Source: Bifidobacterium sp. ESL0769 (lineage in GTDB: Bacteria > Actinomycetota > Actinomycetes > Actinomycetales > Bifidobacteriaceae). From it: 64,000 nucleotides of DNA. Positions 35,722-41,283 of this stretch are shown here, in pieces; within the stretch, counting starts at the first letter, position 1; each line of letters begins with the position of its first letter. The translations under genes were made by a program, and so were the position numbers. The notes beneath the pieces were generated by a model, which saw nothing but the letters and a program-made list of their open reading frames with translations, was not told where the DNA came from and searched no databases. Location: contig NZ_CP113918.1 of the NCBI RefSeq assembly GCF_029395495.1, positions 682,001 to 746,000 on the forward strand. The letters are read 5' to 3'.

Positions 35722-37887
35722 GTGCCGAAGCGTCGTACTCATAAAAATAATTCAGATAACTCTGCCGATTTTAGGGGCGGAGACTATGCAGGCTCACAAA
35801 TGAATAATCCTGATTCTTATAACTCAACCAAATCCAAACAGGCCGAAGAAGCGGCCGAAAGCGCTGCTGCGTATGCCAAAACCGGCGACCAGCCCGAACG
35901 CACTTTTGCCGAACTCGGCGTGCCCGGCCCGCTGGTAAGCGTACTGGCTCGTGATGGCAAGACCGTCGCCTTCCCGATTCAGGCCGACACCCTCGGTGAT
36001 TCGCTGGCAGGCCGTGATGTGCTCGGCCGCGGCGAAACCGGAAGTGGCAAAACGTTGGCATTCTCCATTCCTCTGATCGCCCGTCTGGCCGAACAAGGCC
36101 AGGGCGAAGCCGCAATGCGTGACTTCGAGCGTATGAATCGCGGCGATCGCAAGGCGCAGAAGTGCGCAATGCTGCCTCATCCGCACGGAATGATTCTTGC
36201 TCCAACTCGCGAACTGGTGAACCAGATCAACGAGGTCGTGGCGCCGCTCGCCGCTGCCTACGATATGCAGACCGCCACCATTTATGGCGGTGTCAAATAC
36301 AGCCGTCAGATTTCCGAGCTTAAGGCCGGCGCCGAAATCATCGTCGCCTGCCCTGGGCGTCTCGAGGATTTGCTGCGCCAGGGCGCACTTTCCATCGAGG
36401 ACGTTGAAGTTGCGGTGCTTGACGAGGCTGACGAAATGGCCGACATGGGCTTCCTGCCCTCAGTGCAGCGCCTGCTCGAGCAAGTCGATCCTGAAGGCCA
36501 GCGCATGCTGTTCTCGGCGACGCTCGACCACGGCGTCGACAAGGTCGTGAAGCAGTTCCTGCACGATCCGAAGATCCACGAAATCGCGCCTGCCGACGCG
36601 CAGGTCGACACCATGACCCACCACGTTTTTGAGGTTTCGCAAGGCAACAAGTACGAGGTCATTCGTGAGCTCGCCAGCGGCAAAGGCAAGCGCATCCTCT
36701 TCACGCGCACCAAGTACCAGGCCAAGAAGATGGCTGACAAGCTCGTCAAGGAAGGCATTCCAGCCGTCGATTTGCAGGGCAATCTTTCACAGAACCAGCG
36801 CGACCGGCATCTGGCAGCGTTCACTTCCGGGGACGTTAACGTGCTGGTGGCCACCGACGTGGCCGCGCGCGGCATCGACGTCAGCGATGTAGCGATGGTC
36901 GTGCAGACCGAGCCGCCGGAGGATCCGAAATCGTTCCTGCATCGTTCCGGACGTACCGCGCGTGCTGGCGAATCCGGCGACGTGGTGACGCTGGTGCTGC
37001 CGCAACAACGTCGCGATGCTCGCCAGATGCTGCATCGCGCGGGTATCAAGGCCAAGAGTCAGCAGATTGTTCCGGGTGCTCCCGAGCTTGAGGAACTGGT
37101 AGGGGAGCACGCCCCACTGGTCGAAGGATGGACGCTCACTGTGCCGGTCGTCAACCGCAGGGCCGGTCGCACCGGGCGCGGTGGACGCAACGAAGGCCGT
37201 GGCGGACGTGGCGGTTACGGGCGTAAAGACCGCGGCGGACGTCGTGACCATAACAACCGGCATGAGGGTTCTAGGCGTCCGTTTGGCAAGCGCGGCCGTG
37301 AGGATTCCGGCGAGGACTTCAACGAACGTGGTGGTCGCAATGACGGTTTCAATGATTCCCGTTCTCGCGGTGACCGTGGCGATGGCTTCAACGAGTCTCG
37401 TTCGAGCAACAAGCGTCGTGATGGTCATAAGAACCGCAACCCGCGCTACGATGACGGACAAGGCCCGATTGACGGCCGTTCCTCGCGTGGCCGTAGTGAC
37501 AGCCGCCGTTCGCGTGATTTCTATGACGACGATTATCGCAAGGGCAGCGGTAAACGGCATCATTCTGATTATGATGATCGCGGCAACCGCGGCAGCAAAG
37601 GCAAGAACCGCCGTTATGACGGCAAGCGTTCCGGCAGCCGTAATGGCGGCTATTCTGACGGTTACGGTGATTCCTACGGTTCCGGCAAATCGAATCGTCA
37701 CGGTGGCTATGGCAAGTCCGGAGGCCGTGGGCGTGGTGAAGGCTACGAAGGTGGGCGTTCCGGTGGCCGTGGACGTGGCTATAACGAAGGTCGTTCCGGC
37801 AAGCGCAACCAGCGCTCGCGCAAGGCCGACGGCTTCCACCGTTCGCGTGGCAAACGCAACTCCACCCCGTTCCGTCGTTCGCGCTGA
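35722..37887 (+). CDS. DEAD-box RNA helicase with RGG-rich tail
   Basis: 721 residues. Motifs: F-AELGVPGPLV and Q in PIQADT (Q motif); GRGETGSGKT (I); PTRELV (Ia); DEADEMADMGF (II); FSATLD (III); ATDVAARGIDV (V); HRSGRTARAG (VI). The last 250 residues are Arg/Gly/Asp/Asn/Ser rich with many RGG and RSG steps, a typical RNA-binding tail that is unusually long here. Unwinds RNA in ribosome assembly or mRNA decay. GTG start with AAAGG upstream. Followed by a strong terminator. Confidence 0.92.
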   Translation: MPKRRTHKNNSDNSADFRGGDYAGSQMNNPDSYNSTKSKQAEEAAESAAAYAKTGDQPERTFAELGVPGPLVSVLARDGKTVAFPIQADTLGDSLAGRDVLGRGETGSGKTLAFSIPLIARLAEQGQGEAAMRDFERMNRGDRKAQKCAMLPHPHGMILAPTRELVNQINEVVAPLAAAYDMQTATIYGGVKYSRQISELKAGAEIIVACPGRLEDLLRQGALSIEDVEVAVLDEADEMADMGFLPSVQRLLEQVDPEGQRMLFSATLDHGVDKVVKQFLHDPKIHEIAPADAQVDTMTHHVFEVSQGNKYEVIRELASGKGKRILFTRTKYQAKKMADKLVKEGIPAVDLQGNLSQNQRDRHLAAFTSGDVNVLVATDVAARGIDVSDVAMVVQTEPPEDPKSFLHRSGRTARAGESGDVVTLVLPQQRRDARQMLHRAGIKAKSQQIVPGAPELEELVGEHAPLVEGWTLTVPVVNRRAGRTGRGGRNEGRGGRGGYGRKDRGGRRDHNNRHEGSRRPFGKRGREDSGEDFNERGGRNDGFNDSRSRGDRGDGFNESRSSNKRRDGHKNRNPRYDDGQGPIDGRSSRGRSDSRRSRDFYDDDYRKGSGKRHHSDYDDRGNRGSKGKNRRYDGKRSGSRNGGYSDGYGDSYGSGKSNRHGGYGKSGGRGRGEGYEGGRSGGRGRGYNEGRSGKRNQRSRKADGFHRSRGKRNSTPFRRSR

Positions 37888-37943
37888 AATCTGGTGGGCG
37901 ACGGTTTAGCGCTCGTTGTCTGCTAGCCGCAATCTGACTTATC

Positions 37944-37978
37944 AAAGGTGTCATGGATTCTCCGTGGCACCTTTTGTG
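37944..37978 (+). terminator. Terminator of the DEAD-box helicase gene
   Basis: AAAGGTGTCATGG (37944-37956) pairs with CCGTGGCACCTTT (37962-37974) through 13 bp with two G-T pairs and a five-base loop, followed by TTGTGTT. Confidence 0.85.
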
Positions 37979-37989
37979 TTGTACTGCCA

Positions 37990-38286
37990 GAAACGTGCAC
38001 TTTGCGTCGTGTAAAGCGCACTTCTGAGACATTGGTGTCGGAAAAGTGCATCCAAATGCTTCTAAAGTGCACTTTTGCCGTGCTGATATCAGAAAAGTGC
38101 AAGTGATATGTCGTAGAGTGCACTTTTGCATGCCGACGTTAGAAATGTGCGTTTCATTGGGATGCTGCACTTTTTGTACGCCAATGTAAGAAAAGTACAG
38201 GTTATCGCTGGTAACGTGCACTTTTGCGGCACTGGCGCCAGATAAGTGCATGTTTCGTTGATTAAAGTGCACTTTTCTGACATAAG
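37990..38286. repeat. Array of six ~51-bp units with inverted AAAAGTGCA/TGCACTTTT arms
   Basis: Units begin at 37990, 38041, 38092, 38142, 38190 and 38241 (spacings 51, 51, 50, 48, 51). Each opens with a GAAAAGTGCA variant, then a variable 14-17 nt. A second motif close to AAAGTGCACTTTTG follows, itself containing the palindrome AAGTGCACTT, then about 15 semi-conserved bases. The two motifs of a unit are mutually complementary, so each unit can form a hairpin. Because 51 is a multiple of three, open frames on the minus strand show 17-residue Cys-containing repeats, but none has a ribosome-binding site. Located between the helicase terminator and the UvrA-like gene. Confidence 0.85.
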
Positions 38287-38382
38287 TATTGCATTATGTT
38301 CGCATGTGGAATCAGGCGGGTGCGGCGAATAGAGTTGGGCATTGTGAATGATGGCAAGAACGGAATACACACGGTGAATGAG

Positions 38383-41283
38383 ATGAATAACAGTAGTAAC
38401 CCTAAAGAACGTAGCGGGATTGACGTAACCGTCTCTTCGGTTCCGCAGGCCATCGAGGTGCGCGGCGCTCGCGTCCATAATCTGCGAGATATCGATGTCT
38501 CCATTCCGCTGAACGAACTCGTCGGCATCGCCGGGGTCTCCGGTTCCGGCAAGTCGTCGCTGGCGCTTGGTGTGCTCTACGCCGAAGGTTCGCGGCGCTA
38601 TCTCGACGCACTTTCGACCTACACCCGTCGTCGGATGACGCAGGCCGAGAAGCCGCAGGTTGATTCGGTACGGTTCATTCCGCCGGCTTTGGCGTTGCGG
38701 CAGCGTCCGGGCGTTGGAGGCATGCGTTCCACTTTTGGCACTTCAACCGAGACTCTAAATGTTCTGAGGCTGATGTTTTCTCGTCTCGCTTCGCATCGTT
38801 GCCCGAACGGTCATTATCAGAAGCCGACGCTTGATGTTGCCGCTGAGATTCCGATTCATTGCGCTGTTTGCGGGGCTCTCGTGGAACCTCCCAGCGCCGA
38901 ACAGATGGCGTTCAATTCCACCGGAGCCTGCCCGAAATGTCAGGGGACCGGAACCATCCATGAGGTCAACGATGCCGCACTGGTTCCCGACGAAAACCTC
39001 ACTATCGACGAAGGTGCCGTGGTGCCGTGGCGGACGTTCGGGTTTAACGTCCAACCCGATATCGTCCGCGAATTCGGTGTGCGTACTGATGTGCCGTTCA
39101 AGGACCTTACAGACAAAGAGCGTGACATCGTTTTCAATGGGCCGGAGGAGAAGAAGCCCATCACCATCACTTCGGTCAAAGGCGTGCATCACCTCGATTT
39201 TACGTTCCGCAACGCGCGCTTGACCGTGACCAAGGAGCTTGACCGTGCCAACGATGAGAAGCGTTTGGCCAAGGTCTCGAAGTTTCTGGTCGAGCGGACC
39301 TGCCCGGATTGCGGAGGTTCGAGGCTCAACGAGGCTGCGCGGGCTCCAAAAATCAGCAAATACAACTTAGCGGAAGTCACGGCTTGGCCGTTACGTAAGG
39401 TGCTTGAATGGGCTAAAACGGTTCCGGATTCGTTGCCACAGGATATGCGGCAGATGGCCGAAAGTCTCGTCGATACCTTGGAAGACATGGGCCGCAGACT
39501 CATCCAGCTCGGCTTAGGGTACTTGACGCTCGATCGTGCCAGTGCCACGCTTTCGACCGGCGAACGGCAGCGTGCCCAGCTTTCACGTGCGGTGCGCAAC
39601 GAGACCACCGGTGTGCTCTATGTACTTGACGAGCCTTCCACCGGTTTGCATCCAGCGAATATCGAAGGTCTTATCGGCGTGATGCGGGATTTGTTGGCTT
39701 CCGGCAATTCGGTGGTGTTCGTTGACCACGACGTCCATGTCCTTAATGCCGCTGATTACTTCATTGAGATGGGCCCTGGTGCTGGCAGCCGAGGCGGCCG
39801 CATACTCACGGAAGGTGCACCTGCCAAGATATTGCGTAACCCGAAGTCGCGTATCGCAGGCTTCCTTGACGGCTCCCAGCTCGTGGTCGTTCGCAAGCGA
39901 CTTGCGTTGCCACCGGTTTCAGCGGACTTGCGCAGGTTTATGAATCTGCCAAGTCGGAATGATGAAGTCATTGACCATCAGCATAAAGGCAACGGTCAGT
40001 TGAGTCGTGCCGACATGAAAGTGGCCTCTGTCGAATCCGTAGCGACGCCAACAGTTACCGAAGCGGATTGGATCACCATGGCCACCGATATCATCCACAC
40101 TGTGCATCCGCTGCATGTCGCCATTCCTCGCGGGCGGATGACAGCCATCACCGGCGTTTCCGGTTCCGGTAAAACGACGATGATTCTGGAGTCGTTGATT
40201 CCAGCGTTGCAGGCGCAGGAAAACCACACGCCGTTGCCGTCCCATGTCCGTTCGCTTGATGCTGCAGGCATTACTCGCGTGCGTTTGGTCGATTCCACTC
40301 CCATCGGCATCAACGTACGTTCGACGGTCGCCACCTACACTGGCATTATGGACATGCTGCGTAAGGCTTTCGCAACGACTGCATCAGCCAAGAAGCGCAA
40401 ACTCAAGGTGTCTGCATTCTCCTACAACACCGGAACGCTCCGTTGCCCGCAATGCGACGGCACTGGTCAGATCAGCCTCGATATTCAGTTCCTGCCCGAT
40501 GTCACCATCACCTGCCCGACCTGCGAAGGTCGCCGTTATCGTCCCGAAGTCAACGATGTTCGGCTTGCAACGCCTACGCATCCTCAAGGGTTGACGCTTC
40601 CCGAAGTGCTTGATTTGGAAGTGGATGATGCTCTTGACTTCTTTGCACTTGATGACGATTTCGAATCTGCTTCTGGTTCGTCTTCCAACTTGTCTTCACA
40701 CGGTTCCGCTAATCATAAACGAGCAACTTTGTCTGTTTCCGCTTCCAATTCGTCTTCGCGCAAGCTGGGCAATCATCGAGGACTACACGCTTCGCTGGAT
40801 TCTATGAATACCACCGGTTCGTCGGATGACCTAGATTCCGGCGATATGATTACTCCCGCTCTGCTCAAGCGCATTCACAAGGCCCTCGAAACTCTTCACG
40901 ACCTTGGCCTCGGCTATCTCACGTTGGGAGAGGACACCCCGAATCTTTCCGGCGGCGAAGCCCAGCGTCTTAAGCTTTCCAACGAACTCGGTAAGCGACA
41001 GAGCGCCTCGCTGTTCGTTCTCGACGAACCAACTACCGGCCTTCATCCGCTTGACGTACGTACGCTGATTGACGTACTGCAGCGCCTTATCAAAGGCGGA
41101 GCCACTGTGGTCTTCATCGAACATGACCTCGACATGATCGCCAACGCCGATTATGTCATCGACATGGGTCCAGGTGGCGGCGAGGAGGGCGGCACAATTG
41201 TCGCCACCGGCACCCCGGACGAGATCGCCGATAACCCGGCCAGTATCACCGGACGTTATTTAACCAAGCATTTGGCAGGCTGA
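38383..41283 (+). CDS. UvrA-like ABC ATPase (UvrA paralogue)
   Basis: About 966 residues with two ABC ATPase modules in UvrA order. First: RGARVHNLRDIDVSIP, Walker A GVSGSGKSS, zinc-type CPKCQGTG, signature LSTGERQRAQLSRA and Walker B LYVLDEPSTGLHP. Second: Walker A GVSGSGKTT, CPQCDGTGQ plus CPTCEGRRY, signature LSGGEAQRLKL and LFVLDEPTTGLHP. The region after the first Walker A (RQRPGVGGMRSTFGTSTETLNVLRLMF) differs from canonical UvrA, as in class II/UvrA2 or antibiotic-resistance-type paralogues. A Ser/Asn-rich insert of about 60 residues lies before the second signature. The start is uncertain: ATG 38383 is used; GTG 38374, GTG 38344 and ATG 38296 read in frame. Probable role: DNA-damage sensing or drug tolerance. 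Confidence 0.8.
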   Translation: MNNSSNPKERSGIDVTVSSVPQAIEVRGARVHNLRDIDVSIPLNELVGIAGVSGSGKSSLALGVLYAEGSRRYLDALSTYTRRRMTQAEKPQVDSVRFIPPALALRQRPGVGGMRSTFGTSTETLNVLRLMFSRLASHRCPNGHYQKPTLDVAAEIPIHCAVCGALVEPPSAEQMAFNSTGACPKCQGTGTIHEVNDAALVPDENLTIDEGAVVPWRTFGFNVQPDIVREFGVRTDVPFKDLTDKERDIVFNGPEEKKPITITSVKGVHHLDFTFRNARLTVTKELDRANDEKRLAKVSKFLVERTCPDCGGSRLNEAARAPKISKYNLAEVTAWPLRKVLEWAKTVPDSLPQDMRQMAESLVDTLEDMGRRLIQLGLGYLTLDRASATLSTGERQRAQLSRAVRNETTGVLYVLDEPSTGLHPANIEGLIGVMRDLLASGNSVVFVDHDVHVLNAADYFIEMGPGAGSRGGRILTEGAPAKILRNPKSRIAGFLDGSQLVVVRKRLALPPVSADLRRFMNLPSRNDEVIDHQHKGNGQLSRADMKVASVESVATPTVTEADWITMATDIIHTVHPLHVAIPRGRMTAITGVSGSGKTTMILESLIPALQAQENHTPLPSHVRSLDAAGITRVRLVDSTPIGINVRSTVATYTGIMDMLRKAFATTASAKKRKLKVSAFSYNTGTLRCPQCDGTGQISLDIQFLPDVTITCPTCEGRRYRPEVNDVRLATPTHPQGLTLPEVLDLEVDDALDFFALDDDFESASGSSSNLSSHGSANHKRATLSVSASNSSSRKLGNHRGLHASLDSMNTTGSSDDLDSGDMITPALLKRIHKALETLHDLGLGYLTLGEDTPNLSGGEAQRLKLSNELGKRQSASLFVLDEPTTGLHPLDVRTLIDVLQRLIKGGATVVFIEHDLDMIANADYVIDMGPGGGEEGGTIVATGTPDEIADNPASITGRYLTKHLAG

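What the first reader, a model, noticed from the sequence alone, without database searches (positions are those of the whole stretch)
37990..38286. Six-unit 51-bp array of hairpin-forming repeats between two core genes
Units of 48-51 bp carry complementary motifs AAAAGTGCA and TGCACTTTT with variable inner sequences and semi-conserved linkers. Spacing is regular, but the inner bases differ from unit to unit. It is not CRISPR-like in layout. It could be an operator array, a structured RNA, a replication or segregation site, or a genus-specific repeat family. It begins 12 bp past a strong terminator and ends about 100 bp before the UvrA-like gene.
Basis: seen in the sequence. Interest (0 to 1): 0.75.

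Follow-up and report, generated by a model that had tools for sequence, protein, structure and literature searches.

The report
Dispersed 51-bp palindrome arrays, bee bifidobacteria
Between two ordinary genes lies one of about twenty arrays of a strictly spaced, palindromic 51-bp DNA unit that sit at inherited positions, mostly in the origin half of the chromosome, in one group of Bifidobacterium, and that look like docking sites for an unknown chromosome-organising protein.

Summary
The array is real: six units at 37991-38276, unit starts 51, 51, 50, 48 and 51 bp apart. It is one of 21 arrays (81-84 units) in this genome, of a family I found only in one Bifidobacterium subclade (9 clear carriers among 112 genus genomes, 2 marginal; in 394 class genomes only the window's own). 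Adjacent detected units are exactly 51 bp apart in 181 of 189 intervals although their centres diverge. Arrays recur at orthologous intergenic sites in other species (20 of 21 share at least one flanking gene), rarely lie between divergent genes (1 of 21), and lie mostly in the origin half (19 of 21). The dyads show no overall compensatory covariation, so these look like double-stranded DNA sites, not RNA hairpins. AA/TT/TA steps recur every 10.2 bp: a unit is five helical turns. The genome has one ParB with canonical parS elsewhere and no RAYT transposase. Best reading: cooperative sites for an unidentified dimeric or oligomeric protein acting on the origin-proximal chromosome, working like sopC, Noc or SlmA sites but not shown to be any of them. 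Main rival: an old BIME-like palindrome family, perhaps gyrase sites. The binder is unknown; one candidate was tested and rejected.

The parts
37944..37974 (+). intrinsic terminator after the upstream helicase gene (not part of the array)
   Evidence: 14-bp stem followed by a T-rich tail; fold z = -5.1
37991..38025 (.). unit 1: half-sites AAACGTGCA / CGCACTTCT, 17 bp between them
38026..38041 (.). linker between units 1 and 2 (16 bp), with GACA and TGTC as palindromic arms
38042..38076 (.). unit 2: exact half-sites AAAAGTGCA / TGCACTTTT
38093..38127 (.). unit 3: exact half-sites AAAAGTGCA / TGCACTTTT
38143..38174 (.). unit 4: half-sites AAATGTGCG / TGCACTTTT, only 14 inner bases
38191..38225 (.). 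unit 5: half-sites AAAAGTACA / TGCACTTTT
38242..38276 (.). unit 6: half-sites ATAAGTGCA / TGCACTTTT
35722..37887 (+). upstream neighbour: DEAD-box helicase; its orthologue flanks the orthologous array in three other species
   Evidence: Pfam DEAD and Helicase_C; synteny
38296..41283 (+). downstream neighbour: UvrA-like ABC ATPase (longest ORF; an in-frame ATG at 38383 is another possible start)
   Evidence: Pfam ABC_tran and UvrA DNA-binding; ORF; synteny

Best explanation
The array is one member of a chromosome-wide set of double-stranded DNA binding arrays. Each 51-bp unit offers two TGCA-centred dyads (about AAARTGCAYTTT) 21 bp apart, and 30 bp separate them from the next unit's, that is about two and three helical turns; between units lies a palindromic GACGnTAnYGTC linker. 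AA/TT/TA steps recur every 10.2 bp, so a unit is five turns with those steps on one face. A dimeric, oligomerising protein not yet identified would bind neighbouring units cooperatively and form a nucleoprotein patch. Because the patches are inherited at fixed sites, lie mostly behind genes rather than in divergent promoter regions, and are concentrated in the origin half, the likeliest job is organising, segregating or marking the origin-proximal chromosome, in the way that sopC/SopB, Noc or SlmA sites work. Shown here: the arrays, their spacing, lack of overall covariation, positional conservation, clade restriction and origin bias. Inferred: the protein, cooperative binding and the chromosome role.
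For: Spacing: 181 of 189 adjacent intervals are exactly 51 bp in loci of 8 genomes, while adjacent units share on average 55% of inner bases and 82% of half-site bases; 198 of 207 in all fetched non-G000 loci; inner length 17 in 218 of 226, linker 16 in 160 of 172. Dyads kept without overall pair covariation: 991 of 1377 paired cells against 999 expected (35-bp dyad) and 405 of 648 against 411 (linker) in 81 units; 71.4% against 72.8% in 84 units from three genomes. Orthologous positions: for 20 of 21 arrays a fetched array of another species lies beside an orthologue of at least one flanking gene, for 15 of 21 beside both; all 5 fetched G086 and all 6 fetched G089 arrays map to G000 arrays. 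Half-sites more conserved than the rest in 58 of 81 unit pairs, although pairs were chosen on the rest. Origin bias: within +-25% of oriC in 19/21 (G000), 11/15, 13/16, 13/13, 5/5, 9/9, 6/6, 13/18; none of the 67 sites lies in 860-2168 kb. AA/TT/TA power at 10.2 bp is 47% of the total, antiphase to G+C steps; a peak that strong at any period in 0.1% of symmetric permutations. Flank genes unrelated in function; 6 convergent, 14 tandem, 1 divergent.
Against: No binding protein is known; the only candidate examined, the 346-aa protein at the array hotspot, has no match in carriers G086 and G089. G000 has one ParB only. The origin bias could follow from where conserved genes lie: I had no control for core-gene density, arrays shared by descent are not independent between genomes, and with nearby arrays merged the p-values of single genomes are 6.5e-5 to 0.024. 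G090 has one array 989 kb from the origin. The other genomes' arrays came from truncated listings. The 10.2-bp signal is clear for AA/TT/TA steps but not for plain A+T content (22%, as strong at any period in 38% of permutations) or G+C steps (15%, 87%). Predicted intrinsic curvature is only mildly raised: 30 of 35 arrays more curved than shuffles, mean z -1.1 (parameters recalled). The innermost pair of the dyad alone does exceed its shuffles (z 3.3). Relatives G082, G091 and G092, nested among carriers in the DnaA tree, have few matches, so a full set is not indispensable.
Confidence: 0.45

Rival explanations
1. An old, non-coding palindromic repeat family that works like BIME-2: tandem palindromes behind genes that bind a general topology enzyme such as DNA gyrase (or HU), relieving torsion near the busy origin half. 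No dedicated protein is needed.
For: Intergenic, mostly behind genes, 1 of 21 between divergent genes; tandem growth by 51- and 102-bp steps in some arrays (12 units in the G084 counterpart); 10.2-bp phased AA/TT/TA steps as expected for wrapped DNA; BIME-2 units are reported to bind gyrase strongly (PMC2817692, passages read).
Against: No Y1/RAYT transposase in 11 of 11 array-bearing genomes tested; arrays stay at orthologous sites and are not scattered anew; strong conservation of specific half-sites rather than even decay; gyrase is universal but the family is subclade-specific in what I searched.
Confidence: 0.3
2. Structured RNA: hairpins in the 3' or intercistronic transcript that stabilise mRNA or are processed.
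For: The array RNA folds better than shuffles (z -6.1); some arrays lie between genes of one direction that may share an operon, e.g. between an ABC permease and an ABC ATPase gene; the innermost dyad pair exceeds its shuffles (z 3.3).
Against: No overall covariation; no Rfam match; 6 of 21 arrays lie between convergent genes; the window array follows a terminator.
Confidence: 0.07
3. Operators of a transcription regulator controlling the neighbouring genes.
For: Palindromic sites in intergenic space; two arrays sit between a response-regulator and a histidine-kinase gene.
Against: Neighbours range from glutamate dehydrogenase to UvrA-like, adenylosuccinate synthetase and a chloride channel; 1 of 21 lies between divergent genes; no sigma-70-like promoter match in 37800-38500 (other promoter types are not covered).
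Confidence: 0.1
4. A decayed or ongoing selfish tandem repeat with no present function.
For: Unit number varies from 1 to 17 between arrays, also orthologous ones; recent tandem duplicates in G084; several low-copy relatives.
Against: Rigid spacing and half-site conservation across species whose flanking proteins are 54-100% identical.
Confidence: 0.08

Closest known systems
F-plasmid sopC (parS-F) centromere with SopB
   Same: Tandem units of about 40-50 bp with inverted repeats as an array bound by a dimeric protein (twelve 43-bp repeats holding ten 16-bp inverted repeats; PMC6238139, passages read)
   Different: One array on a plasmid against about 20 dispersed chromosomal arrays here; different sequence; no second ParB in G000
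Noc binding sites (B. subtilis) and SlmA binding sites (E. coli)
   Same: Dozens of dispersed palindromes under-represented near the terminus (PMC4726725, passages read; PMC4117426, abstract read)
   Different: Described there as short palindromes (14 bp for Noc), not as 51-bp arrays; no Noc-like ParB paralogue in G000; a SlmA-like TetR protein was not searched for
REP / BIME-2 elements with RAYT transposases
   Same: Extragenic palindromes, often in regularly spaced clusters (PMC2817692, passages read)
   Different: No Y1 transposase; no overall pair covariation; fixed 51-bp period; arrays at inherited sites
CGTC-tagged REPs
   Same: CGTC/GACG appears in the linkers; those REPs too lack a dedicated transposase (PMC3733652, passages read)
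   Different: There the tag is unpaired at one end of a stem with a 4-5 bp loop, reported from five other phyla; here a palindromic linker inside a tandem array
Bifidobacterium animalis GGGACAG-N15-TGTCCC motif
   Same: Dispersed intergenic palindrome in another Bifidobacterium, mostly nearer gene 3' ends, unexplained (PMC5217627, section 13 read)
   Different: Different sequence; 21 copies; not described as tandem arrays

Membership tests
Canonical parS | 16-bp TGTTTCACGTGAAACA (recalled consensus) | tested here: not met
   Canonical parS sites lie apart at 2430.7-2433.9 kb; none of the listed sites falls in an array
sopC/ParB-type centromere array | tandem units each holding an inverted repeat | tested here: met
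sopC/ParB-type centromere array | a cognate ParB/SopB (PF02195) besides the chromosomal ParB | tested here: not met
   G000 has two PF02195 matches, and the one ParB beside the parS cluster holds PF02195 in two stretches; G083 and G082 do have a further PF02195 protein
Noc/SlmA nucleoid-occlusion sites | sites depleted near the terminus | tested here: met
   no core-gene control
Noc/SlmA nucleoid-occlusion sites | bound by a ParB-like Noc | tested here: not met
   no ParB paralogue in G000
Noc/SlmA nucleoid-occlusion sites | bound by a TetR-like SlmA, and block of FtsZ | not testable with these tools
   needs binding and cell biology; TetR genes were not searched
REP/BIME with RAYT | REP-associated tyrosine transposase in the genome | tested here: not met
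   0 of 11 array-bearing genomes; the control rang in 5 of 14 known genomes and the search in G061
REP/BIME with RAYT | extragenic, repeated palindromes | tested here: met
   two arrays overlap a low-confidence ORF of the crude gene caller
Structured RNA family | compensatory base changes in the stems | tested here: not met
   one innermost pair at z 3.3
CRISPR array | near-identical repeats with unique spacers | tested here: not met
   units diverge and half-sites are 9 bp
DNA gyrase strong sites | gyrase cleavage at the array | not testable with these tools
   needs Topo-seq

The most novel reading that the evidence does not exclude
A lineage-specific chromosome-marking system in bee-gut bifidobacteria: about twenty sopC-like arrays in the origin half, read by a protein unrelated to ParB/Noc, so that a phylum described as lacking the canonical Z-ring regulators has evolved its own nucleoid-occlusion or segregation landmarks.
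Probability: 0.28. Interest if true: 0.85.

Novelty: new variant of a known kind. Interest (0 to 1): 0.62.

Why it matters
[quoted passage not shown] coli (PMC7118173, start of abstract seen in the listing). The strict five-turn period also makes the array a natural model for cooperative or wrapped protein-DNA assembly. I saw no description of it in the listings of the paper searches; subscription journals are mostly not held.

Tried and rejected
RNA hairpins: rejected on covariation and Rfam. REP/RAYT: no Y1 transposase in 11 of 11 array-bearing genomes. Noc-like ParB paralogue: none in G000. Cognate candidate at the array hotspot (346-aa protein, no Pfam match; I recall it as AbiEi/DUF559-like): its orthologue (63% identity or more) occurs in the 6 high-copy carriers but not in G082, G086, G089, G091 or G092, with no match at all in G086 and G089, so it cannot be the general binder. 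Restriction-site idea: GTGCAC is not depleted in the rest of the window (8 seen, 8.9 expected). Plasmid or phage origin: one G085 array stretch has no similar DNA in the plasmid and phage collections; 4 viral-contig hits are single sites, all 4 viewed with 60 bp on each side. Distant hits of the genome-contig scan: 30 of 34 stretches are outside Bifidobacterium; I viewed 8 of these 30 with 60 bp on each side, all single hairpins, not 51-bp arrays; 22 were not viewed. Replichore orientation of units: seen but confounded with GC skew, so not claimed. 'Spacing relaxes where a unit decays' (3 of 21 double intervals equal 102): dropped, because an indel inside a unit itself hides the unit from the scan. 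My notebook gives the TGCA centres as 26 and 25 bp apart; that is wrong: those are half-site starts, and the TGCA centres are 21 and 30 bp apart.

Full report
Observation. The window holds six palindromic units at 37991-38276, between a DEAD-box helicase gene followed by a strong terminator and a UvrA-like gene. Unit starts are 51, 51, 50, 48 and 51 bp apart. Exact motif pairs occur twice in the window and never in 100 shuffles.

Genome-wide set. The window is bases 682001-746000 of a single 2,495,776-bp contig. With up to 3 mismatches the 35-bp dyad has 67 sites in the genome and 0 for the backwards control. From the stretches I fetched I took 81 units (84 at the lower threshold) in 21 arrays. 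The consensus is AAAAGTGCA-N17-TGCAYKTTT with a 16-bp linker around GACGnTAnYGTC. Read another way, TGCA-centred palindromes (about AAARTGCAYTTT) follow each other 21 and 30 bp apart in turn; 187 of 390 units have exact TGCA at both places, and the window shows the 21-30-21 rhythm in units 2-3 and part of it in units 5-6.

Spacing. In loci of 8 genomes, 181 of 189 adjacent intervals are exactly 51 bp; neighbouring units share on average 55% of their 17 inner bases and 82% of their half-site bases. Inner length is 17 in 218 of 226 and linker length 16 in 160 of 172. In 390 units from 9 genomes, 47% of the periodic power of AA/TT/TA steps lies at 10.2 bp, in antiphase (-174 degrees) to G+C steps; a peak that strong at any period occurs in 0.1% of dyad-preserving permutations. 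Plain A+T content (22% at 10.2 bp; 38% of permutations) and G+C steps (15%; 87%) taken alone are not significant. A unit is thus five helical turns, with its AA/TT/TA steps on one face. Predicted static curvature is only mildly raised: 30 of 35 arrays tested, mean z -1.1, with recalled wedge parameters.

DNA, not RNA. In 81 units the paired cells of both dyads do not exceed shuffles of one side: 991 against 999 (of 1377) and 405 against 411 (of 648); of the 25 single pairs the innermost one of the long dyad is above its shuffles at z 3.3. A three-genome alignment of 84 units gives 71.4% against 72.8%, with fewer double changes than the shuffles. Both halves are kept, but largely independently, as for protein contacts on double-stranded DNA. 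Rfam has no match in 37500-38700. The array RNA does fold well on paper (z -6.1), which any palindromic array would.

Who has it. In 112 genomes of the genus the pattern is abundant in G000, G083, G084, G085, G087 and G090 (35-67 sites) and moderate in G082, G086 and G089 (8-12); the others have 0-5, the backwards control 0-2. A sequence-only covariance model gives 163, 116 and 179 matches in G000, G083 and G084 (both strands counted), and in 12 relatives 92 (G085), 85 (G087), 99 (G090), 25 (G089), 21 (G086), 22 (G082), 6 (G091), 2 (G092) and none in G088, G093, G008 and G025. The other genus members were tested with the pattern only. In 394 genomes of the class only G000 matches, with stricter filters. 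An exact-pattern scan of the genome collection gave 34 stretches, 4 of them in Bifidobacterium (sp. ESL0682 twice, ESL0784, B-bin1). A DnaA tree of 29 rows puts the 11 array-bearing genomes on one side of a branch, with modest support (74/56; 78% of 200 bootstrap trees). The species of the window itself is not named by any search.

Inherited positions. For 20 of 21 G000 arrays a fetched array of another species lies beside an orthologue (50% identity or more) of at least one flanking gene, for 15 of 21 beside both. The window array has counterparts in G083 (7 units), G084 (12) and G090 (3), with flanking proteins 83-90% identical. All 5 fetched arrays of G086 and all 6 of G089 correspond to G000 arrays. 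In 81 unit pairs matched on inner and linker bases, half-sites are 84% identical against 77% for the rest, and higher in 58 of 81 (the pairs are not independent). So the arrays are old residents under constraint, with unit number changing by tandem steps.

Where. dnaA sits at the contig end or start in G000, G083, G084, G085, G086 and G090 and at about 1891 kb in G087 and 153 kb in G089. In G000, 19 of 21 arrays are within a quarter genome of the origin (0 of 200,000 random sets as biased; with 17 merged loci p = 6.5e-5). Other genomes: 11/15, 13/16, 13/13, 5/5, 9/9, 6/6, 13/18. For G089 I used an origin about 42 kb off the dnaA found later; by my arithmetic all 6 stay inside. These genomes share ancestry, the lists of the other seven came from truncated listings, and I had no core-gene control, so the bias is solid as a description but not yet as a sign of function. 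G000 arrays lie between convergent (6), tandem (14) or divergent (1) genes by a crude gene caller. Flank proteins have no common function: 39 were scanned against Pfam.

Mechanism. Rigid phasing, independent dyads, fixed sites and the lack of a regulon point to cooperative binding of a dimeric or oligomeric protein; the origin half points to chromosome organisation or division coupling. Known systems that work this way are parS-F/SopB (twelve 43-bp repeats; PMC6238139, passages read) and the Noc and SlmA sites, depleted near the terminus, where arrays put into the terminus delay division (PMC4726725, passages read). It is not shown to belong to any: G000 has a single ParB, next to a ParA-type gene and the canonical parS cluster, and the binder is unknown. 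The 346-aa protein at the three-array hotspot was tested and dropped. The main rival is a BIME-2-like gyrase target (PMC2817692, passages read); the RAYT half of that family is absent.

Papers. Seen: PMC5217627 (passages and section 13), PMC6238139, PMC4726725, PMC3733652, PMC12306157 and PMC2817692 (passages), PMC4117426 (abstract and outline). PMC7118173 was seen only in a search listing.

Noticed in passing
G000:C1:113366-116440 (L026:2367-5441): Hotspot with three arrays in 3 kb around a Ser/Thr kinase, a histidine-phosphatase-family protein, a 346-aa protein without Pfam match and a GH3 enzyme; arrays lie beside the 346-aa orthologue in G083, G084, G085, G087 and G090 too.
   Followed up: partly
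L034:2060-2491: A 143-aa protein with no Pfam match is 95-100% identical in the five other species where its gene lies beside a fetched array.
   Followed up: partly
G000:C1:2430655-2433898: Cluster of nine canonical parS sites (eight exact, one with a mismatch) at parB and parA, about 60-63 kb before dnaA; the parB-dnaA distance is under 10 kb in G083 and G084.
   Followed up: no
G015, G016, G044, G048, G055, G074 (L042, L043, L058, L059 among them): Other Bifidobacterium genomes carry a 35-bp palindrome AAAAGTTCAATT...AATTGAACTTTT (some with a changed end base), like one dyad with GTTCAA in place of GTGCA.
   Followed up: no
L099:1306 and 2367, L114:1715: Coprococcus catus contig with three similar hairpins AAAAGTGCAGATTAT...ATAATCTGCACTTTT; single elements, not 51-bp arrays.
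   Followed up: partly
G083:C1:119194-120219: The 346-aa gene's copy in G083 is reported with one TAG inside the match.
   Followed up: no
window, whole: CCTAGG is absent from the window outside the array (0 copies), the lowest observed-to-expected ratio of all 64 six-base palindromes.
   Followed up: no
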